Origin: Deltaproteobacteria bacterium HGW-Deltaproteobacteria-1
Lineage (GTDB): Bacteria > Desulfobacterota > Syntrophia > Syntrophales > Smithellaceae
Direction: 5' to 3'
Assembly (NCBI GenBank): GCA_002840635.1
Contig: PHBN01000001.1
Location: 1 to 44,454, forward strand
Length of the DNA stretch: 44,454 nt
The notes under the pieces are model-generated. The model was not told the DNA's origin, searched no databases, and was given only the letters and a program-made list of their open reading frames with translations. Made by a program: the position numbers and the translations under genes. Positions 13,353 through 39,922 of this stretch are shown in pieces (position 1 is the first letter of the stretch; the number at the start of each line of letters is the position of its first letter).

Positions 13353-16241
13353 ATGAAACCATTCAATAAAAAGTGGCTGACGCGGATTTCTTCCGAACCT
13401 GCCTCTCAAAAAGGCATCGACCGGCGAACATTTTTAGGTCGGGGAGCCGTTGTCTTGGGCAGTGGCGCCTTGCTGGGGTTCTTACCGCTGTCATGCGTAA
13501 GGGATGCCACGGAAGAGGAAAAGAAGAATTTCCCACGGCCTGATGTAAAGATGGAATACCGCCGAAGCATTTGCACCCACTGCTCGGTGGGATGCGGTGT
13601 AATCGCCGAGCTTCAAAACGGCGTATGGGTAGGCCAGGAACCCGATTATGAATCACCCTTCAATCTTGGTTCTCATTGTGCAAAGGGAGCCTCCGTCCGG
13701 GATCATGGCTTTGGCGTCAAACGTTTAAAATATCCTATGAAGCTCGTGAACGGGTCATGGCAAAGGCTATCCTGGGACCAGGCCATCAATGAGATCGGCG
13801 ACCGCTTTCTGAAGATTCGCAAAGAGTCGGGTCCTGATGCGGTGTTTTTCTGTGGATCCTCTAAAGCGAGCAACGAGGGTTCTTACCTTCAACGAAAATT
13901 CGCCGCGTTTTGGGGCACGAACAATATCGATCACCAGGCACGCATCTGCCATTCGACTACGGTAGCCGGCGTAGCGAGCACTTGGGGCTATGGCGCCATG
14001 ACCAATTCCTACAACGATATGCATAACTCCAAAGTCATGCTGTTTCTCGGCAGCAATGCCGCCGAGGCCCACCCGGTGGCCATGCAGCATGTATTGAGGG
14101 GAAAAGAAAACGGCGCTAAAATTATTGTCGTGGACCCGCGCTTCACGCGCACGGCAGCCCATGCCGATATCTATGCGAGGCTTCGCCCGGGAACAGATAT
14201 TCCTTTTATTTACGGTCTGCTCTGGCATATTTTCAAGAATGGTTGGGAAGACAAGCAATACATCGCCCAGCGGGTCTGGGCGATGGACGATATCCGCAAA
14301 GAGACCAATAATTGGCCACCCGATGTCGTGGAAAATGTGACGGGCATGCCGAAAGAAAAGGTATATGAAATTGCCAAAACCATGGCGGAAAACAAGCCTG
14401 GCACCATCGTTTGGTGTATGGGCGTCACTCAGCACCATATGGGCACTAATACCACAAGGCTTTTCTGCATCCTCCAGCTGGCCCTGGGTAACATTGGCGT
14501 CGCCGGCGGCGGTGCCAACATCTTTCGCGGCCATGACAACGTGCAGGGGGCAACCGATATAGGCCCTAATTCCCATACCCTGCCCGGATATTATGGACTG
14601 GCTGAAGGGGCATGGAAACATTGGGCTCGCGTCTGGGATGTGGATTATGAATGGCTCAAAGCCCGGTTTGATATGACGGGTAAATATGATTCCGGGAACG
14701 GTACCCCGGAATACACCATGTTCATGGAGGGAATCCCTGTTTCACGCTGGATCGACGGTGTCCTGGAGGACAAGAAAAATATCGCCCAAAGGGATAATTT
14801 CCGAGCCGTTTTCTTTCAAGGCCATGCCGCGAACAGTCAGACCCGCGGCGTGGAGATGAAGAAAGCATTAGAGAAACTGGAAATGGTCGTGATCTCCGAT
14901 CCCTATCCGACCCACATGGCGGTGATGAGCGACCGGAAGAATGATACCTATCTTCTGCCGACCTGCACCCAGTTTGAAACCTACGGATCCGTCACCGCCT
15001 CGAATCGTTCACTGCAATGGCGGGAAAAGATTATAGAACCGCTCTACGAAGCATTGCCGGACCACACCATTTTATATAAATTAGCCAAGAAACTGGGCTT
15101 TGAGAAAGAACTGTTCAAACATATCAAGGTGACAAACGACGAACCCCTGATTGAAGACATTCTGAGGGAAGTTAACCGTGGCGCCTGGACCATCGGCTAT
15201 ACAGGACAGACCCCTGAGCGTCTCAAGCTTCAGGCCAAGCATCGGGGCACTTTCAACACAACAACCCTGAAAGCCGAAGGCGGTCCCTGCAACGGCGAAT
15301 ATTACGGCCTGCCCTGGCCCTGCTGGGGGGCGCCGGAAATGAAACATCCCGGGACGCCGATCCTCTATGATCCCAGCAAACCGGTTGCTGAAGGTGGACT
15401 GGTTTTCCGGGCTCGCTTCGGCACGGAACGAAACGGCCAAAACCTGCTGGCCGAAGGGGCCTATTCCCAAGGTTCGGAAATCAAGGACGGTTATCCGGAA
15501 TTCACCGACGTGCTGCTCAAAAAACTGGGCTGGTGGAATGATCTCACGGAGGCGGAAAAAAAGGAAGCTGAAGGGCGCAACTGGAAAACCGATCTCTCCG
15601 GCGGTATCCAGCGGGTAGCCATCAAACACGGCTGCGCACCGTTCGGGAACGCAAAGGCCCGTTGCCAGGTCTGGGAATATCCCGACCCCGTCCCGATTCA
15701 CCGTGAACCCCTTTATACACCAAGGTTCGATCTCGTGAAGAAATATCCCACGTATCAGGACCGTAAGATATTCTGGCGGTTGCCGACCCGGTATAGCTCC
15801 ATTCAATCCGTTAATCACAGCCAGAAATATCCCCTGGTTTTTACCAGTGGCCGATTGGTGGAATATGAGGGGGGCGGTGCGGAGACACGCTCCAATCCCT
15901 GGCTGGCCAAGTTACAGCCGGAAATGTTCGCTGAAATTAACCCGAAAGATGCGAATGATGCGGGCATCGGTAATGAACGATACATGTGGTTGGAGGGTGC
16001 GGAAGGGGGCAGAATCAAGGTAAGGGCCATGGTCACCCCGAGAGTCGGTCCCGGTGTGGTCTGGACACCGTTCCATTTCGGCGGCTGGTTTGAGGGTAAG
16101 GATCTCTATGACCGTTACCCGGAGGGCACCGTGCCCTATGTGCGCGGTGAATCGTGCAATACCGCCACCACCTATGGCTACGATGCCGTTACCCAGATGC
16201 AGGAAACCAAAGCAACGCTCTGCCGTATAACACCTGCGTGA
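13353..16241 (+). CDS. fdhA: Formate dehydrogenase catalytic (molybdopterin) subunit, FDH3 type, Cys-containing
   Basis: 962 aa; Tat leader DRRTFLGRGAVVLGSGALLG; CTHCSVGCGVIAE [4Fe-4S]; QARICHSTTVAGVASTWGYGAMTNSYNDM, with Cys (TGC 13947-13949) where E. coli FdnG has Sec. Confidence 0.95.
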   Translation: MKPFNKKWLTRISSEPASQKGIDRRTFLGRGAVVLGSGALLGFLPLSCVRDATEEEKKNFPRPDVKMEYRRSICTHCSVGCGVIAELQNGVWVGQEPDYESPFNLGSHCAKGASVRDHGFGVKRLKYPMKLVNGSWQRLSWDQAINEIGDRFLKIRKESGPDAVFFCGSSKASNEGSYLQRKFAAFWGTNNIDHQARICHSTTVAGVASTWGYGAMTNSYNDMHNSKVMLFLGSNAAEAHPVAMQHVLRGKENGAKIIVVDPRFTRTAAHADIYARLRPGTDIPFIYGLLWHIFKNGWEDKQYIAQRVWAMDDIRKETNNWPPDVVENVTGMPKEKVYEIAKTMAENKPGTIVWCMGVTQHHMGTNTTRLFCILQLALGNIGVAGGGANIFRGHDNVQGATDIGPNSHTLPGYYGLAEGAWKHWARVWDVDYEWLKARFDMTGKYDSGNGTPEYTMFMEGIPVSRWIDGVLEDKKNIAQRDNFRAVFFQGHAANSQTRGVEMKKALEKLEMVVISDPYPTHMAVMSDRKNDTYLLPTCTQFETYGSVTASNRSLQWREKIIEPLYEALPDHTILYKLAKKLGFEKELFKHIKVTNDEPLIEDILREVNRGAWTIGYTGQTPERLKLQAKHRGTFNTTTLKAEGGPCNGEYYGLPWPCWGAPEMKHPGTPILYDPSKPVAEGGLVFRARFGTERNGQNLLAEGAYSQGSEIKDGYPEFTDVLLKKLGWWNDLTEAEKKEAEGRNWKTDLSGGIQRVAIKHGCAPFGNAKARCQVWEYPDPVPIHREPLYTPRFDLVKKYPTYQDRKIFWRLPTRYSSIQSVNHSQKYPLVFTSGRLVEYEGGGAETRSNPWLAKLQPEMFAEINPKDANDAGIGNERYMWLEGAEGGRIKVRAMVTPRVGPGVVWTPFHFGGWFEGKDLYDRYPEGTVPYVRGESCNTATTYGYDAVTQMQETKATLCRITPA

Positions 16242-20676: not shown

Positions 20677-21189
20677 ATGAAAAAATCAATAGCGGCTTCA
20701 ATTTTGGCAGTCGTCGTGGGAGTAGTTCTTATTTCCTGGGATGCAGATACTCAAATGGGATATGGACCAGGCTATGGTAGAGGACAGGGTATGATGGGCG
20801 GCGGAACGGGGTGGGGAGCGGGATCCTTTCGTTCTAACGGAGAACGCATCTATTTCACCTCTACGAGCGAGCGCGGTACGGTAATCACTTACGCGGGCGG
20901 TCCGGCATCGAGTGGTTGGATGATGATGGGAGGACAACTGGCATGTGTTTCATGTCATGGTCCGGATGGGCGGGGTGGCAGACACTCCATGGGAATGATG
21001 CAGGTGATGGATGCCAAAGATATACGCTGGAAAGTTTTGCAGCCCGAATTCGATGCGGAAAAATTTCGACTGGCGGTTGTAAAAGGTCAGGACCCCGATG
21101 GCACCCAGTTAAAACCGGACATGCCGCGATGGAATATCGGCAAAGCTGATTTGGCCGACCTGATTGCTTTCCTCAAAACGCTGCCATGA
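20677..21189 (+). CDS. c-type cytochrome with Gly-rich N-terminal tract
   Basis: Signal peptide; GYGPGYGRGQGMMGGGTGWG tract; CVSCHGPDGRGG heme site; ADLIAFLKTLP terminus. Confidence 0.88.
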   Translation: MKKSIAASILAVVVGVVLISWDADTQMGYGPGYGRGQGMMGGGTGWGAGSFRSNGERIYFTSTSERGTVITYAGGPASSGWMMMGGQLACVSCHGPDGRGGRHSMGMMQVMDAKDIRWKVLQPEFDAEKFRLAVVKGQDPDGTQLKPDMPRWNIGKADLADLIAFLKTLP

Positions 21190-23148: not shown

Positions 23149-23238
23149 TTACTGCCTTTCATGAAATGTTGATTTGGCATGGTTATTGACAACGTATCAA
23201 GAAAAATTCAGTTTTGGTACTTGCGCGAGGAAAAAATA

Positions 23239-25362
23239 ATGGAACATCATCACCATTTAGAACACCCGCCAGAAGCAATGAATCACACGATGCACGAAGG
23301 GCACGACATGAAAGGGTCTAAAGGTGGCAACCACACCGATCACCATGCCCACATGGCGGCGGACTTCCGGAAACGGTTTTGGATTTCGCTTATTTTGACT
23401 CTGCCGATTCTCATCCTCTCGCCGATGCTTCAAATGCTGGTGGGCCTGAGGGAAACCATTCATTTCCCCGGCGACATCTATGTCTTATTCGTTTTTTCTT
23501 CCGCGGTATTCTGGTATGGCGGCTGGCCGTTTCTGAAAGGCCTGTTCGAGGAGCTCAAATCCCGTCAGCCCGGGATGATGACGCTGGTTGCCGTCGCCAT
23601 TACCACGGCCTATGTTTACAGCAGCGCCGTCGTGTTCGGCCTGGCCGGCAAAATCTTCTTCTGGGAATTGGCCACGCTTGTAGACATCATGCTGCTGGGG
23701 CACTGGATCGAGATGAGGTCGGTGATGGGCGCTTCTAAAGCCCTGGAAGAACTGGCCAAACTCATGCCCTCCGACGCCCACAAACTCATGCCCGACGGCA
23801 GCGTAAAGGATGTGCCGCTCGGTGAACTGGCGGTGGATGATAAAGTCCTGATCAAACCGGGTGAGAAAATTCCCGCAGACGGTGTCATTGTGGAAGGCGA
23901 GAGCTCGGTTAATGAAGCGATGCTCACCGGGGAATCAACCCCTGTTGCTAAAAAAACCGGTGGCAAGGTCATCGGCGGCGCAATTAACGGTGAAGGTTCA
24001 CTGACAATCGAGGTCAAAGGCACCGGGAAGGATTCGTTTCTGGCGCAGGTCATCGACCTTGTCAAACAGGCCCAGGAAAGCAAATCGAAAACCCAAAAAT
24101 TTGCCGACACCGCCGCGATGTGGCTCACCATCGTGGCGCTCAGTTGCGGTGCCGTCACCTTCCTGATCTGGTTGGTTGCCATGAGCAAGGAATTTTCCTT
24201 TGCCATCGAGCGAGCCGTGACCGTAATGGTCATCACCTGTCCGCATGCGCTGGGTCTTGCTATACCCTTGGTTGTGGCCGTTTCCACAGCCCTGGCCGCG
24301 AAAAACGGCCTGCTCATTCGTAATCGCGTTTCTTTCGAAGGCGCGCGAAAACTGCAAGCCATCATTTTCGACAAGACCGGCACGCTCACTGAAGGCCGTT
24401 TTGGCGTGAGCGACACACTCGTACTATCGCAGGACATCGACGAAGAAACGCTGCGCCAATACGCGGCCTCTGTAGATGCAAATTCCGAACATCCCATCGC
24501 CACGGCCATCGCCGCTTCTTCGGAAAAGAAGCTGCCCGTTGAAAACTTTAAAAGCATCCCGGGCAAAGGCGCCGAAGGCACAGTCGAGAGTAGAGAAATT
24601 AAGGTGGTCAGCCCCGGCTACCTCAGCGAACAGAAAATACATCTTGCCGACCCGCGCATCGAACCACTGCAAGCACAAGGCAAAACGGTTGTGTTTGTCC
24701 TCGTGGACGGGAAGTTGAAAGGAGCCATTGCCTTGGCCGATATCGTCCGGCCCGAGGCGAAGCAAGCCATCGATGCTCTTAAGGCGTTGAATATTCGCTG
24801 CATGATGCTCACCGGCGATAACAAGGCGACAGCCAAATGGGTATCAGATCAGGTCGGATTGGACGAATACTTCGCCGAAGTCCTGCCCGGGGATAAAGCC
24901 GCCAAAGTGAAAGAGGTCCAATCCAGGGGTATCCTGGTGGCCATGACCGGAGACGGTGTGAACGATGCCCCGGCGCTGGCGCAGGCTGATGTGGGCATCG
25001 CCATCGGAGCGGGTTCCGATGTAGCGGTGGAAACCGCTGACGTGATTCTGGTGCGGAGTAATCCGCTGGATGTTGTGGCCATCGTGCAGCTGTCACGCGC
25101 CACTTACCGCAAGATGATTCAAAATCTTTTCTGGGCCACAGGCTACAATGCCTTCGCCATTCCACTGGCCGCCGGAGCGCTTTATGCTTGGGGCGTACTA
25201 CTTAGTCCCGCCATGGGCGCGGTATTGATGTCCGCAAGCACGGTGATTGTGGCCATCAATGCACGACTGCTGAAACTGAAGACAGAGCCAAACCTAAAGA
25301 CAAAGCACAATGACGATCGGCAAAGAAAGATTAAGTTAGATGAATATGCCAAACCGGCTTGA
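23239..25362 (+). CDS. Copper-translocating P-type ATPase, CopB-like (CPH motif, His-rich N-terminus)
   Basis: MEHHHHLEHPPEAMNHTMHEGHDMKG...HTDHHAHM; TGES, VITCPHALGLAIPL (CPH), DKTGTLTEG, GDGVNDAPALAQADVGIAIGAGSDVA. Confidence 0.92.
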   Translation: MEHHHHLEHPPEAMNHTMHEGHDMKGSKGGNHTDHHAHMAADFRKRFWISLILTLPILILSPMLQMLVGLRETIHFPGDIYVLFVFSSAVFWYGGWPFLKGLFEELKSRQPGMMTLVAVAITTAYVYSSAVVFGLAGKIFFWELATLVDIMLLGHWIEMRSVMGASKALEELAKLMPSDAHKLMPDGSVKDVPLGELAVDDKVLIKPGEKIPADGVIVEGESSVNEAMLTGESTPVAKKTGGKVIGGAINGEGSLTIEVKGTGKDSFLAQVIDLVKQAQESKSKTQKFADTAAMWLTIVALSCGAVTFLIWLVAMSKEFSFAIERAVTVMVITCPHALGLAIPLVVAVSTALAAKNGLLIRNRVSFEGARKLQAIIFDKTGTLTEGRFGVSDTLVLSQDIDEETLRQYAASVDANSEHPIATAIAASSEKKLPVENFKSIPGKGAEGTVESREIKVVSPGYLSEQKIHLADPRIEPLQAQGKTVVFVLVDGKLKGAIALADIVRPEAKQAIDALKALNIRCMMLTGDNKATAKWVSDQVGLDEYFAEVLPGDKAAKVKEVQSRGILVAMTGDGVNDAPALAQADVGIAIGAGSDVAVETADVILVRSNPLDVVAIVQLSRATYRKMIQNLFWATGYNAFAIPLAAGALYAWGVLLSPAMGAVLMSASTVIVAINARLLKLKTEPNLKTKHNDDRQRKIKLDEYAKPA

Positions 25363-34804: not shown

Positions 34805-36160
34805 TTAAATAACGATACGATATTCTCTGATCTTGTTTTGGAGAGTTTTGCGCGTTACCCCTAAAATCAGAGCTGCTTTGGTCCTGTTTCCGCCGGTCTG
34901 TTCAAGCGTTTTCAGGATCACCTCTTTTTCAATTTCTTTCAAAGAAGAACCTGTCGGGCCCGGCTTTATATCGTTTCCGTTTGGTAAGGTTTTAAAATCC
35001 TGAGGAAGATCTTCAAAAAGAAGTCTGTCACCGTGACTCATGATCACCATTCTTTCTATGATATTTTCCAGTTCCCGCACATTCCCAGGCCAGGGGTAGC
35101 GAACCAGGGCATCCATAACTCGAGGTTCCAGTGTTTTGACGTCCTTATTGTTTTTCCCGGCGTACTGTTTAAGAAAATGTTCAGCCAAAAGAGGGATGTC
35201 CTCCTTTTTATCTCTCAACGGGGCGATGGTGATCGGTACCACATTGAGGCGATAAAAAAGGTCTTCTCGAAAGCGGCCTTCTTTAACTTCCTTCCCCAAA
35301 TCTTTGTGGGTCGCAGCAATGATTCTCACATCCACTGAAATGGTCCGATTCCCCCCGACGGGTTCAAACTCCTTCTCCTGAAGGACTCTCAATATCTTTG
35401 CCTGTGTTGCGGGCGACATCTCTCCAATTTCATCAAGAAATAACGTTCCCCCATCGGCTAATTCAAACCTTCCTTTTCTTTTAGACTGGGCTCCGGTAAA
35501 AGAGCCTTTTTCATGACCAAAGAGTTCACTTTCCAACAATGTTTCCGGAAGGGCGGCGCAATTAACCTTGATGTAGGCCTGGTCTTTTCTAAGGCTGTTT
35601 TGATGAATGGCATTAGCGATAACTTCTTTTCCTGTTCCGCTTTCCCCAAGGAGAAGAACCGTGGCATCCGTCGGGGCTACCATGGCCAGGGTTTCAAAAA
35701 GTTCTTTCATGGATTGACTCTTACCGATGATATTGGAAAAATGGAATCTTTCCCCCAGGCGTTCCCGGTTTAAAATATTTTCTTTCTCCAAATCTCGATA
35801 GTGGAGGACCTTTTCGATCTTTAAAAGGAGTTCATCCATATCCAGGGGTTTGGTCAGATAATCATCGGCGCCGGATTTCAAGGTCGCCACGGCGGATTCG
35901 ATAGAGCCATAGGCGGTCATCATGATAATCGGCAGGCTGGGGCTGATTTTCTTAATTCGGTGGAGAGCCTCAATTCCATCCATAATGGACATTCGAATAT
36001 CCATCAAAATGAGATCATAAAAATGTTGACTGACCAAATCCACAGCTTCCTGACCGTCGGATGCCTCGATGACTTCATACCCTTCCTCGCCCAGGTGCGC
36101 CTTGAGCATCATCCGATGACTGGATTCATCGTCAACGACAAGGATCGTTTGTTTATTCAT
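34805..36160 (-). CDS. Sigma-54-dependent response regulator (NtrC/ZraR-like)
   Basis: 451 aa; receiver DLILMDIRMSIMDG; AAA+ LLLGESGTGKEVIANAIH, GSFTGAQ (ESELFGHEKGSFTGAQ), DGGTLFLDEIGE; Fis-type HTH NRTKAALILGVTRKTLQNKI. Confidence 0.95.
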   Translation of the reverse strand: MNKQTILVVDDESSHRMMLKAHLGEEGYEVIEASDGQEAVDLVSQHFYDLILMDIRMSIMDGIEALHRIKKISPSLPIIMMTAYGSIESAVATLKSGADDYLTKPLDMDELLLKIEKVLHYRDLEKENILNRERLGERFHFSNIIGKSQSMKELFETLAMVAPTDATVLLLGESGTGKEVIANAIHQNSLRKDQAYIKVNCAALPETLLESELFGHEKGSFTGAQSKRKGRFELADGGTLFLDEIGEMSPATQAKILRVLQEKEFEPVGGNRTISVDVRIIAATHKDLGKEVKEGRFREDLFYRLNVVPITIAPLRDKKEDIPLLAEHFLKQYAGKNNKDVKTLEPRVMDALVRYPWPGNVRELENIIERMVIMSHGDRLLFEDLPQDFKTLPNGNDIKPGPTGSSLKEIEKEVILKTLEQTGGNRTKAALILGVTRKTLQNKIREYRIVI

Positions 36161-37937
36161 TCGTTTCTTCCGTAATTAATGGTAACGCTATCTGAAAAAT
36201 AGAACCTACACCCGGTTTGCTGTTCACTGTTAAAGTCCCCTGATGCTTTTCGATGATCCGATAAGCTATGGCAAGGCCAAGCCCTGTTCCTGTTCTCTTG
36301 GTGGTATAAAACGGATCAAATATTTTAGACATATCCTCTCCAGGAAGACCCGGGCCGTCATCTTCAATCTCTATGACGATGATCTTCTTTTCAAGGTTTA
36401 GCAGAGCACGAATTGAAATCGTTCCTCCTGCTTTCAGGACATCCAGCCCGTTCAACATGATATTCAGCAGCGCCTGGGTGATCTGGTCGCTATCCATCAG
36501 GAGCAAAGGCAAATGTTCTGCGGTTTCCGTTTTGACCTGAATCCCTTTTGTCCGGGCGTCATCCTTAATCAATTCTATCGTATGTTGTATAACTGCCTCT
36601 AAAGGAACCATCATCTTAACCGGTTCTTTAGGGCGGGCAAAATCAAGCAGGTTGGAGATAAGCCTATTCAGTCTTTCCACTTCCTGGATGATGACCTGAC
36701 TGTATTTTTGCCCCTCGCTGCCCGGTGGGTTCTTCTTAAGAAAATACTGGGCAAATCCCTTGATGGAGCTCAGAGGATTCCTGATTTCATGGGCCATGCC
36801 GGCAGCCAGTGTTCCCAGGCTGGCCAGCCTTTCGCTCCTTTTAATTTTCTCCTGCAATTCTTTTATTTCCCGTAAGTCCCTCAGGATAATGACCGCCCCC
36901 AGATCTTCTCCTGTTTCCGCAACCAGCCTTGCTGCACTCAGGGCAAGAGGAATGAACTTTCCCTGTTGTCCCGGAAATTCCACCTCGTATTCCATAACAG
37001 GTGTTTTTTCTTTTAATGAGTTTAAGATGGGTCCGATAATAGACCGGAGTTGCTCTTTCGAGGCCTCTTTTTCCGGCCATTTCCCAGTTAGGGAAAGTAT
37101 CTCCTTAGCCCGGTAATTCATTGTGACGATATCTCCATTCGAATCAATGGAGAGAAGCCCGTCGGGCATGTTTTCGACCACATGGTTCGCATACAGGGTG
37201 ACGGCGTTCAGCGCTCTCTGGGTGATATAATAATTCTGTACTAAAAATATGAAATATAAACCGGCTGTACCCATGATCAATAAAATTAAGCCCATCATGA
37301 CCGCATGACGCAGGTCGCTGTCCCGTGCTTCTTCAAATGACTTCGTATCCAACCCTACGACGGCGTAAACCTGACCGGAAAACACCTGGTCAAGGAGTGT
37401 GCCGCTAGGCGATGTCGCAGCATGCCTTCTATAGCGCATGCGATCGGCCATATCATCGCCTTGCCCCATGGCAGGGAAGACGTCCATCTTTTTTGCCACG
37501 AAGAATACCCCTTTATCGCCAAACCAGCTCTTCGGTTCATCTTGTTTTACTATCCCGGTGATTTTTTCCTTCTGAGGAAAAGCTGTTCCGATCAAGTGTT
37601 CATTGCTATGTGCAAGAATGATACCTCGCTGATCCAGCAGGGCAATGAAATGAATATCCGAAAGATTGGCAATGGAAACCATAATCTCCTGAAGGTTGTC
37701 ACTTCGCCCCATCATCCCCATCATGCCGGTGTGAAAGGAAGCCTCGAGGCTTTTGAGAATGATCTTTCCCTCACGGCTCAGTGATTGCTCCATCCGGAAT
37801 TGATACTGGTGTAAATGCCTGTATGTCGAGATACCCAGAAGAATAAATAAAGTTATAACAACCGCAAGGATAGAGAAAATGGGAATGAACAACTTCTTGC
37901 TTCTGGTTGTCGGGATTTTGTATTTATTAAATTTCAT
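36153..37937 (-). CDS. Membrane sensor histidine kinase (ZraS-like, periplasmic sensor + PAS + HisKA/HATPase)
   Basis: 594 aa; GTLAAGMAHEIRNPLSSIKGFAQYF, ALLNIMLNGLDVL, IEDDGPGLPGEDMSKIFDPFYTTKRTGTGLGLAI; overlaps the regulator start. Confidence 0.95.
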   Translation of the reverse strand: MKFNKYKIPTTRSKKLFIPIFSILAVVITLFILLGISTYRHLHQYQFRMEQSLSREGKIILKSLEASFHTGMMGMMGRSDNLQEIMVSIANLSDIHFIALLDQRGIILAHSNEHLIGTAFPQKEKITGIVKQDEPKSWFGDKGVFFVAKKMDVFPAMGQGDDMADRMRYRRHAATSPSGTLLDQVFSGQVYAVVGLDTKSFEEARDSDLRHAVMMGLILLIMGTAGLYFIFLVQNYYITQRALNAVTLYANHVVENMPDGLLSIDSNGDIVTMNYRAKEILSLTGKWPEKEASKEQLRSIIGPILNSLKEKTPVMEYEVEFPGQQGKFIPLALSAARLVAETGEDLGAVIILRDLREIKELQEKIKRSERLASLGTLAAGMAHEIRNPLSSIKGFAQYFLKKNPPGSEGQKYSQVIIQEVERLNRLISNLLDFARPKEPVKMMVPLEAVIQHTIELIKDDARTKGIQVKTETAEHLPLLLMDSDQITQALLNIMLNGLDVLKAGGTISIRALLNLEKKIIVIEIEDDGPGLPGEDMSKIFDPFYTTKRTGTGLGLAIAYRIIEKHQGTLTVNSKPGVGSIFQIALPLITEETNE

Positions 37938-37985
37938 TACGAAATATTTTATCTCTTTTTTTTAAAAAATCATAGCCTTATCGGG

Positions 37986-38002
37986 TGCATAAAAATTATC
38001 CA
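37986..38002. promoter_or_regulatory. Imperfect dyad, candidate upstream activator site 1
   Basis: TGCATAA-AAA-TTATCCA (one mismatch from the perfect dyad at 38029). Confidence 0.5.
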
Positions 38003-38028
38003 ATAGATGCTCAGTTAAGTAAGCTTGG

Positions 38029-38045
38029 TGCATAAATATTATGCA
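38029..38045. promoter_or_regulatory. Perfect dyad, candidate upstream activator site 2
   Basis: TGCATAA-ATA-TTATGCA, perfect inverted repeat; centre 43 bp from site 1 and about 100 bp upstream of the -24/-12 element. Confidence 0.65.
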
Positions 38046-38131
38046 GTTGCCCCCGATAGGGGAGAGTCAAAGAGAATAATTATTACTATTTTATTAATTA
38101 TAGTAGATACTTATGATTGATGCTAACCATT

Positions 38132-38147
38132 TGGCATACCCCATGCA
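38132..38147 (+). promoter_or_regulatory. Candidate sigma-54 (-24/-12) promoter for the 38182 gene
   Basis: TGGCATACCCCATGCA: GG 38133-38134, GC 38145-38146, 10-nt spacing; 36 bp upstream of the ATG with GGAGG RBS between. Confidence 0.75.
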
Positions 38148-38181
38148 ATGATAACGATTAAAACATTGAAGGAGGTAGGAT

Positions 38182-38565
38182 ATGAAGAAGTTATTTATAG
38201 CATTGGTTCTGGTTTTTGGATTAGGCGTAGCTGGTGTTGCTTCGGCAGGTTATTGGGGCGGACACATGATGGGTTGGGGTTACGGTGGATATGGGGCAGG
38301 TCCGGGATATGGCAATGCAGGTTCCGGATATGGCATGCCCTGTTGGGACAATAGTTATGGCCCCGCTCAAGGTCAAAAAAAGTTGACCAAAGAGGATGCC
38401 GAAACCATTACACAAAATTACATTGGCCGGAATCCTAATTTAAAGGCTGGAAAGATTGAGGACAAAACGAAGTATTTTGAAACAGAGATACGTACCAAGG
38501 ATAATTCTCTGGTCTCCAAGCTGACCATTGACAAGAATACCGGCTACGTTGATCAAAGTTATTAA
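38182..38565 (+). CDS. Secreted Gly/Tyr-rich protein with PepSY-like C-terminus
   Basis: MKKLFIALVLVFGLGVAGVASA signal peptide; GGHMMGWGYGGYGAGPGYGNAGSGYG tract; LTKEDAETITQNYIGRNPNLKAGKIEDKTKYFETEIRTKDNSLVSKLTIDKNTGYVDQSY. Confidence 0.85.
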   Translation: MKKLFIALVLVFGLGVAGVASAGYWGGHMMGWGYGGYGAGPGYGNAGSGYGMPCWDNSYGPAQGQKKLTKEDAETITQNYIGRNPNLKAGKIEDKTKYFETEIRTKDNSLVSKLTIDKNTGYVDQSY

Positions 38566-38576
38566 GAGAATCAATT

Positions 38577-38605
38577 GCGAGGCCAGGGCAATGCCCTGGC
38601 CTCGC
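38577..38605 (+). terminator. Strong hairpin downstream of the 38182 gene
   Basis: GCGAGGCCAGGGC aat GCCCTGGCCTCGC, perfect 13-bp stem with 3-nt loop. Confidence 0.75.
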
Positions 38606-38612
38606 ATTATGA

Positions 38613-38747
38613 ACAACGGAAGCCGATGTCATGAAATGGATCGTCGCCCCCATAGTTGGCGGTATAATCACGTCCAACATTCTGGAGTTGATGATTTGTC
38701 CGGCGATTTACAATATATGGCAGGGAGGATCTTTCCAGAAGAAATAG
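38613..38747 (+). pseudogene. C-terminal remnant of a heavy-metal RND permease (CusA/CzcA-like)
   Basis: TTEADVMKWIVAPIVGGIITSNILELMICPAIYNIWQGGSFQKK* matches the conserved last TM of HME-RND pumps (VM.RIAAPMVGGM.T..LLEL...PAIY..W); stop at 38745-38747. Confidence 0.8.
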
Positions 38748-38848
38748 CAGGTAGCTTATGACTATCATTATCTACTCATTCAACTATCGTTGCTTATTGT
38801 TATAAGGGTATAGATAATGATAACGGGTTGAAAATAAAGTGAAATGCT

Positions 38849-39265
38849 ATGGACTGGATCAAAGAAAACTGGTTTTTTATTTTGTTTTTTATCTTCTTCA
38901 TCTGGATGCCTTTTTCGTCTCCACCATGGCCATGCGCCACACATCCATGTCCTGATAAATGCAGACAGGAAAACCGGCTCATCACGGATCGCCTCTACGG
39001 GCTGGTGTGGCACCCTCAGTACACGGGACTTTTTATTGCGCTTTTCGGCGAGGCATTGTTCATTGGCCCAACATTTTTTCTGTTCTGCTTTTCCCAATAA
39101 TCGTTCTCGCCTATTTTCTGCTGGCGCGAAGCGAAGAGCGCAAGGTGGAGAACCAGTTTGGTGACGAATATCGCTCTTACCGGAAACGAGTTCCGATGTT
39201 CATTCCACGTTGGGGGCAATGGAGTCAGCTGAAGGGCGAACTCACCGGCATCGTCCGTGCGAGGC
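38849..39265 (+). pseudogene. DUF2933-like N-terminus joined to a frameshifted isoprenylcysteine/phospholipid methyltransferase remnant
   Basis: MDWIKENWFFILFFIFFIWMPF... then RLYGLVWHPQYTGLFIALFGEAL; after a frame change, [45 protein letters not shown]. Confidence 0.75.
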
Positions 39266-39470
39266 GTTTGAGCAACGCCACAATAGCCAATATCAAGAAA
39301 ACCTGTTCTTTGCCTTTATTTGCAACGCGATTGGCGTACCCATTGCAGCGGGTATTCTGTATCCCAATTTCGGCATTCTTCTCAGCCCGATCATTGCTGC
39401 GGCGGCTATGAGCCTTTCCTCCGTTTCCGTGGTCGGAAATGCCCTCAGGCTGAAGAGAGTAAAGATATAG
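39266..39470 (+). pseudogene. C-terminal remnant of a copper P-type ATPase (CopA-like)
   Basis: [63 protein letters not shown] matches the extreme C-terminus of CopA-type ATPases ([45 protein letters not shown]). Confidence 0.88.
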
Positions 39471-39532: not shown

Positions 39533-39922
39533 ATGAAGCGCATAATTTTGATTTTGACAGTTTTATTTTTATCGGTGGGGCTGGCTTACGGGATGGACTA
39601 TGAGGTAATGAAGAAGTCGGGAGACTACACGGTGCAGGTCAAGATCGACCGGAATCCTCCGGCCGTAGGAGACAACAACATGATGATCTGGTTGAAAGAT
39701 GCCGCTGGCAACGATGTTAAGGGCGCCACCATGACGGTAGACTACAGCAAGCCCACCAAATTTTGGAAGTCAGCAAAAAAATACAACTCATGGGCTCAGC
39801 CTCATGAAAACAATTACCATGCAATCCTGGCGGTTCCCACACAGGGGCCATGGGATGTCACTATAAACATCCATCATAGGGGGAAGAGCGTATCAACTGA
39901 GTTCAGAATAGATGTGAAGTAG
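39533..39922 (+). CDS. FixH/YtkA-like secreted protein
   Basis: Signal peptide; YTVQVKIDRNPPAVGDNNMMIWLKDAAGNDVKGATMTVDYSKP...NNYHAILAVPTQGPWDVTINIHHRGKSVSTEFRIDV. Confidence 0.8.
   Translation: MKRIILILTVLFLSVGLAYGMDYEVMKKSGDYTVQVKIDRNPPAVGDNNMMIWLKDAAGNDVKGATMTVDYSKPTKFWKSAKKYNSWAQPHENNYHAILAVPTQGPWDVTINIHHRGKSVSTEFRIDVK

What the first reader, a model, noticed from the sequence alone, without database searches (positions are those of the whole stretch)
34805..38605. ZraSR-like two-component system facing twin dyads and a sigma-54 promoter for a Gly-rich PepSY-like secreted protein
Seen directly: a sensor kinase and NtrC-type regulator pair, divergent from a signal-peptide gene. The intergenic region holds a perfect 17-bp dyad TGCATAA-ATA-TTATGCA (38029), an imperfect copy TGCATAA-AAA-TTATCCA (37986) 43 bp away (about four helical turns), then TGGCATACCCCATGCA with correct -24/-12 spacing and an RBS. 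A perfect 13-bp hairpin ends the gene. This is a complete regulatory unit laid out like ZraPSR/NtrC systems. The output protein is not ZraP by sequence, but it shares a signal peptide and a Gly/Met/Tyr/His tract. Inference: an envelope or metal-stress system with a different effector in place of ZraP.
Basis: partly seen in the sequence, partly recalled or inferred. Interest (0 to 1): 0.72.

Follow-up and report, generated by a model that had tools for sequence, protein, structure and literature searches.

The report
ZraSR-like stress switch, swapped effector protein
A bacterial metal/envelope-stress switch of the ZraSR type keeps the same pair of DNA switch sites and sigma-54 promoter in related lineages, but the secreted protein it turns on has been exchanged: here it is a small PepSY-like protein in the place where relatives make a ZraP-family protein.

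Summary
Confirmed and strengthened. The window holds a sensor kinase/NtrC-type regulator pair divergent from a secreted 127-aa protein, with two 17-bp dyads 43 bp apart and a -24/-12 box. Orthologous pairs occur in two other families of the phylum (kinase 50-56%, regulator 67-70% identity; seven genomes). In all seven the region upstream of the adjacent secreted-protein gene carries the same twin sites at 42-43 bp and a -24/-12 box; each pair beats dinucleotide shuffles (P<=0.0015). The regulator's recognition helix is conserved too. The output protein differs by lineage: three genomes (family f42) make the window's PepSY-like protein, four (f14) make a PF13801 'Metal_resist' protein, the family of E. 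coli ZraP. Both kinds share the signal peptide and a Gly/Met/Tyr tract. The effector's C-terminal module has therefore been exchanged behind a conserved switch; the regulator tree needs at least three exchanges. Copper/silver genes recur nearby, so Cu/Ag is a better guess for the signal than Zn. Not shown: binding, sigma-54 start, inducer, or what the PepSY-like protein does. Most likely it is a periplasmic partner feeding back on the kinase, as DbfQ does for DbfS. New variant of a known kind.

The parts
34805..36160 (-). NtrC-type response regulator (REC, sigma-54 activation AAA+, Fis-type HTH), ZraR/AtoC-like, 451 aa
   Evidence: Pfam PF00072, PF00158, PF25601, PF02954 above cut-off; 51% identity to E. 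coli ZraR; 67-70% in f42 and f14 orthologues
36153..37937 (-). membrane sensor histidine kinase: periplasmic Cache-like sensor with TGMMGMMGR motif, extra PAS, HisKA, HATPase; 594 aa
   Evidence: Pfam; aligns with E. coli ZraS over catalytic core (40%) and over sensor residues 12-138 (26%, E=8e-8); orthologues 50-56%
37986..38002 (.). distal operator TGCATAAAAATTATCCA (7-3-7 dyad, one mismatch)
   Evidence: counterpart in 7/7 orthologous loci at 42-43 bp from the proximal site
38029..38045 (.). proximal operator TGCATAAATATTATGCA (perfect dyad), starts 103 bp upstream of the -24/-12 box
   Evidence: counterpart at 110-115 bp upstream in orthologues, about one helical turn further
38097..38126 (-). 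possible sigma-70-like promoter for the kinase/regulator operon (not better than chance)
   Evidence: 3 found, 2.9 expected
38132..38147 (+). -24/-12 sigma-54 promoter TGGCATACCCCATGCA
   Evidence: GG-N10-GC; orthologues TGGCACAGCCATTGCA, TGGCACGGCCATTGCA, TGGCATGGCTATTGCT, TGGCATGATCATTGCT, TGGCATGGCTGTTGCT
38170..38175 (+). ribosome binding site AGGAGG
   Evidence: read directly
38182..38565 (+). secreted effector, 127 aa: signal peptide, Gly/Met/Tyr/His tract, C-terminal PepSY-like domain (about residues 66-127)
   Evidence: translation; homologues in 34 of 297 genomes; predicted helix plus 3-4 strands, pLDDT about 95-97 for the domain
38576..38606 (+). 14-bp stem-loop after the gene, no T-run on + strand

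Best explanation
This is a self-contained stress-response unit of the ZraPSR plan. A membrane kinase senses a periplasmic signal (most likely Cu(I)/Ag(I) or envelope damage) and phosphorylates the NtrC-type regulator. The regulator binds the two 17-bp dyads 43 bp apart on one DNA face and, from about 100 bp upstream, activates sigma-54 polymerase at the -24/-12 promoter of the divergent gene. The product is exported and acts in the periplasm. In this lineage the product is a PepSY-like protein in the slot that ZraP-family (PF13801) proteins hold in sister lineages. It most likely senses or buffers the signal through its Gly/Met/Tyr/His tract and feeds back on the kinase's sensor domain, as ZraP and the PepSY protein DbfQ are reported to do. 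Shown by sequence: gene layout, domains, orthology, conserved twin operators, spacing and promoter, conserved recognition helix, and exchange of the effector module. Inferred: DNA binding, sigma-54 dependence, metal signal, feedback.
For: Twin sites at 42-43 bp found by an unconstrained spacing search (17-69 bp) in 8/8 loci; each P<=0.0015 against shuffles. -24/-12 boxes in all 8. HTH recognition stretch TRKTLQNKI the same in window, f42 and most f14 regulators, and different where operators differ, e.g. E. coli, L122. Same slot holds PF13801 proteins above cut-off in f14, as E. coli ZraP is. Concatenated kinase+regulator tree: the 8 loci form one clade 100/100, f42 and f14 sister 97/96, window outside; at least 3 effector-state changes on the regulator tree. 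PepSY-like genes next to ZraSR-like pairs have strong sigma-54 boxes in 7 of 8 scored cases against 3 of 20 elsewhere, Fisher P=0.0007 (a ninth adjacent case, L040, has one too). Nearby Cu/Ag genes: CopA-type ATPase beside two f42 loci, multicopper oxidase and Cu-type ATPase in L105, CusA/CzcA pump in L041, CopA and CusA gene remnants just after the effector here. Precedent: DbfQ, a periplasmic PepSY protein, binds the sensor domain of kinase DbfS (PMC12714742); ZraP as periplasmic accessory protein and sole strong ZraR target (PMC8249747).
Against: No experiment. The window's own -12 element is imperfect. The draft genome (83% complete) shows no sigma-54 gene, though 50 of 51 genomes searched in the family have one, so it is probably in the missing part. 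By NCBIfam the kinase and regulator score slightly higher to AtoS/AtoC than to ZraS/ZraR, all below cut-off. PepSY assignment is sub-threshold. The kinase orthologue is absent from 50 relatives of the same family, so the unit is sporadic here. The signal is unknown.
Confidence: 0.72

Rival explanations
1. The circuit is as described, but the PepSY-like protein is a plain metal-binding or scavenging effector (like UipA) with no feedback on the kinase.
For: Gly/Met/His tract and metal-resistance neighbours; UipA is a metal-binding PepSY protein encoded beside UipRS (PMC8963506).
Against: Both effector kinds occupy the place of ZraP, and a small PepSY protein (DbfQ) is a shown kinase regulator. 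The window's PepSY-like domain has no conserved His/Cys cluster; only G25 and G56 are invariant in alignment A2.
Confidence: 0.35
2. The effector acts on periplasmic or secreted peptidases (classical PepSY / inhibitor role) as part of an envelope proteostasis response.
For: Fold match to YpeB C-terminal domain; weak PepSY hit and weak match to a subtilisin propeptide chain.
Against: No peptidase gene adjoins the unit in the window or the f42 loci inspected.
Confidence: 0.12
3. The dyads serve another regulator or are chance AT-rich palindromes; the kinase/regulator pair controls other genes.
For: Single imperfect palindromes are easy to find by chance.
Against: Twin sites with fixed 42-43 bp spacing in three families, always upstream of the adjacent effector's sigma-54 box and not upstream of the kinase in the co-directional loci.
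Confidence: 0.05
4. The contig is misbinned, and the apparent taxonomic mixing (window versus f42/f14) reflects contamination.
For: 4.9% estimated contamination, 558 contigs; kinase orthologue absent from sister genomes.
Against: A 962-aa oxidoreductase on the same contig has 81-90% identical copies in two same-genus genomes. Does not affect the regulatory anatomy.
Confidence: 0.15

Closest known systems
ZraPSR of Escherichia coli (NC_000913.3 4201263-4204645)
   Same: Divergent effector/kinase-regulator layout; sigma-54 box 51 bp before the effector start (50 bp here); paired 7-3-7 dyads upstream; regulator 51% identical; Cache-like periplasmic sensor with a GM.M motif; small secreted effector.
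   Different: Effector is PF13801 there, PepSY-like here; operators CGAGTCATTTTTACTCG/TGAGTAAAAATGACTCG, 31 bp apart, against TGCATAAnnnTTATGCA, 43 bp apart; kinase here has an extra PAS domain.
DbfQRS of Vibrio cholerae and related PepSY/two-component modules (PMC12714742)
   Same: Small secreted protein with a PepSY-type domain encoded beside a two-component system.
   Different: Here the regulator is an NtrC-type sigma-54 activator with a ZraS-like sensor, the effector has a long Gly/Met/Tyr tract, and the Pfam PepSY model is below cut-off.
UipA/UipRS of Microbacterium (PMC8963506)
   Different: UipA is a single-pass membrane protein with tandem PepSY domains; no sigma-54 arrangement was reported in the passages read.
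Zra2 (VC_1314-1316) of Vibrio cholerae (PMC10848872)
   Same: A Zra-like kinase system whose adjacent effector has no similarity to ZraP.
   Different: Its regulator is a 158-aa CpxR-like protein, not NtrC-type.

Membership tests
ZraPSR | ZraS-type kinase with periplasmic Cache-like sensor | tested here: met
   Sensor alignment to E. coli ZraS, E=8e-8; sCache_3_2 hit sub-threshold in both
ZraPSR | curated NCBIfam equivalog cut-offs for ZraS and ZraR | tested here: not met
   334.6 vs 479 and 515 vs 760 bits; AtoS/AtoC models score slightly higher, also below cut-off
ZraPSR | NtrC-type regulator with divergent effector behind a -24/-12 promoter | tested here: met
ZraPSR | effector of the ZraP family (PF13801) | tested here: not met
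   E=0.29, 11.7 bits vs cut-off 29.2; met by the f14 orthologous loci
ZraPSR | same operator sequence as E. coli ZraR | tested here: not met
   Different half-sites, same 7-3-7 paired geometry
ZraPSR | zinc / envelope-stress induction and feedback by the effector | not testable with these tools
   needs expression data
PepSY (PF03413) | Pfam gathering score | tested here: not met
   14.4 bits vs 24; 1 of 19 members hits at all
PepSY (PF03413) | PepSY fold | tested here: inconclusive
   YpeB C-terminal domain 5boi: prob 0.96-0.97, TM 0.67 for the domain model, but E about 0.5
[quoted passage not shown]
   window, L036-L042
DbfQRS-type PepSY/two-component module | direct binding to the kinase sensor domain | not testable with these tools
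   no complex prediction available
sigma-54 regulon | sigma-54 gene in the genome | tested here: inconclusive
   Absent from this 83%-complete draft, present in 50 of 51 family genomes

The most novel reading that the evidence does not exclude
ZraSR-type sigma-54 circuits form a modular sensor chassis whose periplasmic feedback subunit is interchangeable: the same kinase, regulator, twin operators and promoter control either a ZraP-family helical protein or an unrelated PepSY-like protein, with the Gly/Met/Tyr leader kept across the exchange, so two folds perform the same kinase-feedback job.
Probability: 0.45. Interest if true: 0.7.

Novelty: new variant of a known kind. Interest (0 to 1): 0.6.

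Why it matters
How ZraP and CpxP-like accessory proteins inform their kinases is debated. Here nature ran a swap experiment: operators and kinase stayed, the effector fold changed. Comparing f14 (PF13801) with f42/window (PepSY-like) pairs would separate what the kinase needs from what the effector does. It also extends PepSY/two-component modules (DbfQRS type) to sigma-54 enhancer-binding systems and gives a testable operator, TGCATAAN3TTATGCA in pairs 42-43 bp apart, for annotating these circuits.

Tried and rejected
Single-sequence scan of genome contigs with the effector found only one weak Nitrospirota hit, mostly the Gly-rich leader of a different protein. Plasmid search with the effector: none. 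PDB profile search of the effector domain: chance hits only. NCBIfam 'SAR2788 putative toxin' hit (E=2.4e-4, 21 vs 50 bits) was rejected as below cut-off. Rfam: nothing in the window. Canonical terminator: rejected, no T-run on the + strand. A sigma-54 box or dyads upstream of the kinase in f42/f14 loci: none convincing. Clear twin dyads upstream of the L040/L042 effectors: none found. Having all PepSY-linked regulators as one clade is rejected, p-AU 0.0001. A class-wide search for more orthologues returned only the four f14 loci already held.
Full report
What is there. The stated elements are all present. The kinase (36153-37937, minus) and NtrC-type regulator (34805-36160, minus) overlap by 8 bases and diverge from a 127-aa secreted protein (38182-38565, plus). 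The spacer holds TGCATAAAAATTATCCA (37986) and the perfect TGCATAAATATTATGCA (38029), then TGGCATACCCCATGCA (38132-38147) and an AGGAGG. No other site with at most one mismatch exists in the 3.3-Mb draft genome. The stem-loop after the gene is 14 bp, not 13, and has no T-run on the + strand.

Orthologues. A whole-genome search with the kinase found clear orthologues only in two other families of the phylum: f42 (G108, G039, G075 = L036-L038; kinase 55-56%, regulator 70%) and f14 (G260, G194, G048, G143 = L105-L108; kinase 50-54%, regulator 67-69%). In all seven the order is kinase, regulator, then a secreted-protein gene in the same direction, whereas the window has the divergent, E. coli-like order. 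The kinase orthologue is absent from the other 50 genomes searched in the window's own family. Another gene on the same contig has 81-90% copies in two same-genus genomes, so horizontal gain is more likely than misbinning, though the latter is not excluded.

Operators. Searching each spacer for the best pair of sites with any separation from 17 to 69 bp returned 42 or 43 bp in all eight loci. With exact-match scoring each pair beats 2000 dinucleotide shuffles at P<=0.0015; loci within one genus are not independent. The proximal site starts 110-115 bp upstream of the -24/-12 box in the seven and 103 bp upstream here, about one helical turn less. In the co-directional loci the sites lie upstream of the effector and not of the kinase, so they belong to the effector promoter. 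The regulators share the recognition stretch GNRT..A..LG.[TS]RKTLQNKI; E. coli ZraR and other relatives differ there and have different operators. E. coli zraP has the same geometry: two 7-3-7 dyads (31 bp apart) and a -24/-12 box 51 bp before the start codon.

The exchanged effector. In f42 the regulated gene encodes the window's protein family (46-49% identity over 114-137 residues in L036 and L037, and 54% over the last 79 in L038). In f14 it encodes a PF13801 'Metal_resist' protein (41.8, 52.0 and 45.3 bits for the three scanned; cut-off 29.2), the family of E. coli ZraP (82.1 bits); the fourth f14 gene (L106) has a gap of N in its middle and was not scanned, but reads alike. The window protein scores 11.7 bits to that model. 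Signal peptide and GGYGG..MMGPGYGG tract are shared across the exchange; the window protein matches the f14 protein of L106 over residues 2-59 at 48%. On the regulator tree at least three changes between PepSY-like and PF13801 effectors are needed, and a single clade of PepSY-linked regulators is rejected (p-AU 0.0001). On the kinase+regulator tree the eight core loci form a clade with full support, with the window outside f42+f14. L122 and L119 show the divergent layout with a PF13801-type gene (L119 just below cut-off) and a sigma-54 box. L039, L040, L041 and L042 show PepSY-like genes beside more distant ZraSR-like pairs. PepSY-like genes adjacent to such pairs carry strong -24/-12 boxes in 7 of 8 scored cases, against 3 of 20 elsewhere (P=0.0007). 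Two of the three exceptions are in G058, which has a ZraSR-like pair on another contig, and the third is in G105, which also has one.

The effector protein. The last 62 residues are the conserved part: helix plus three to four strands, predicted with pLDDT about 95. Pfam PepSY is the only hit for the window's domain but is sub-threshold. Among fold matches the YpeB C-terminal domain stands out (probability 0.96-0.97, TM 0.67) with a weak E-value of about 0.5. I call it PepSY-like, not PepSY. Homologues elsewhere carry two such domains or a fused middle domain.

Signal. Nothing tests the inducer. Copper/silver genes recur near the unit: a CopA-type ATPase upstream of the kinase in L038 and near it in L037; a multicopper oxidase and a copper-type ATPase end in L105; a CusA/CzcA-type pump in L041. 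A copper-type ATPase lies elsewhere in the window (23179-25362). Immediately after the effector lie broken remnants resembling the C-terminal ends of CusA (weak, E=0.014) and a copper ATPase (E=9e-16). I favour Cu(I)/Ag(I) or envelope damage over zinc.

Mechanism. Shown by sequence comparison: layout, orthology, operators, promoter, effector exchange. Inferred: phosphorylated regulator binds the twin sites on one DNA face and drives sigma-54 transcription of the effector, and the effector then feeds back on or assists the kinase in the periplasm. Precedents: ZraP is the accessory protein and sole strong ZraR target in E. coli (PMC8249747). DbfQ, a 135-aa periplasmic PepSY protein, binds the sensor domain of DbfS and shifts it towards phosphatase activity, and PepSY genes lie near two-component genes over 60 times more often than expected (PMC12714742). 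No held paper mentions PepSY together with ZraP or ZraR.

Limits. The draft genome shows no sigma-54 gene, but 50 of 51 genomes searched in its family do. By curated NCBIfam cut-offs the pair is neither ZraSR nor AtoSC. 'ZraSR-like' rests on the sensor alignment, layout, operator geometry and effector slot.

Noticed in passing
window 38632-39440: Broken remnants just after the effector: a CusA-like C-terminal tail, a DUF2933-like start, a methyltransferase-like fragment with frame changes, and the end of a copper P-type ATPase; looks like a decayed copper-resistance operon.
   Followed up: partly
window 23179-25362: Copper-type P-type ATPase with a His/Met-rich N-terminus, next to cytochrome c-like genes (e.g. 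20677-21189 with a GYGxG..MMGGG leader).
   Followed up: partly
L049, L048, L050, L054: Proteins of about 300 aa that join a Gly/Met-rich leader, a four-helix-looking middle domain and a C-terminal PepSY-like domain; one is in the window's own genome, without a ZraSR-like pair adjoining.
   Followed up: no
L046, L105:13345-14229: Secreted proteins with two PepSY-like domains separated by GYGMGxGMMG tracts.
   Followed up: no
window 13353-16241: 962-aa formate-dehydrogenase-like oxidoreductase without in-frame TGA, found at 81-90% in only two of the same-genus genomes (one fragmentary) and at 83% in one other family of the order: patchy distribution, possible mobile metabolic block.
   Followed up: partly
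L043 (G058): Two PepSY-like genes with sigma-54 boxes and TGTATAA half-sites, but the ZraSR-like pair is on another contig: possible regulation in trans.
   Followed up: partly
L122 4801-5364: Variant operators TGTAAAATAATTATACA and TGTATAATTTTTATACG, 41 bp apart, between a divergent PF13801 gene and a ZraSR-like pair, with box TGGCACATCAATTGCA.
   Followed up: partly
window 39533-39922: Secreted 129-aa protein with a just-above-threshold FixH hit and weaker YtkA-like similarity.
   Followed up: no
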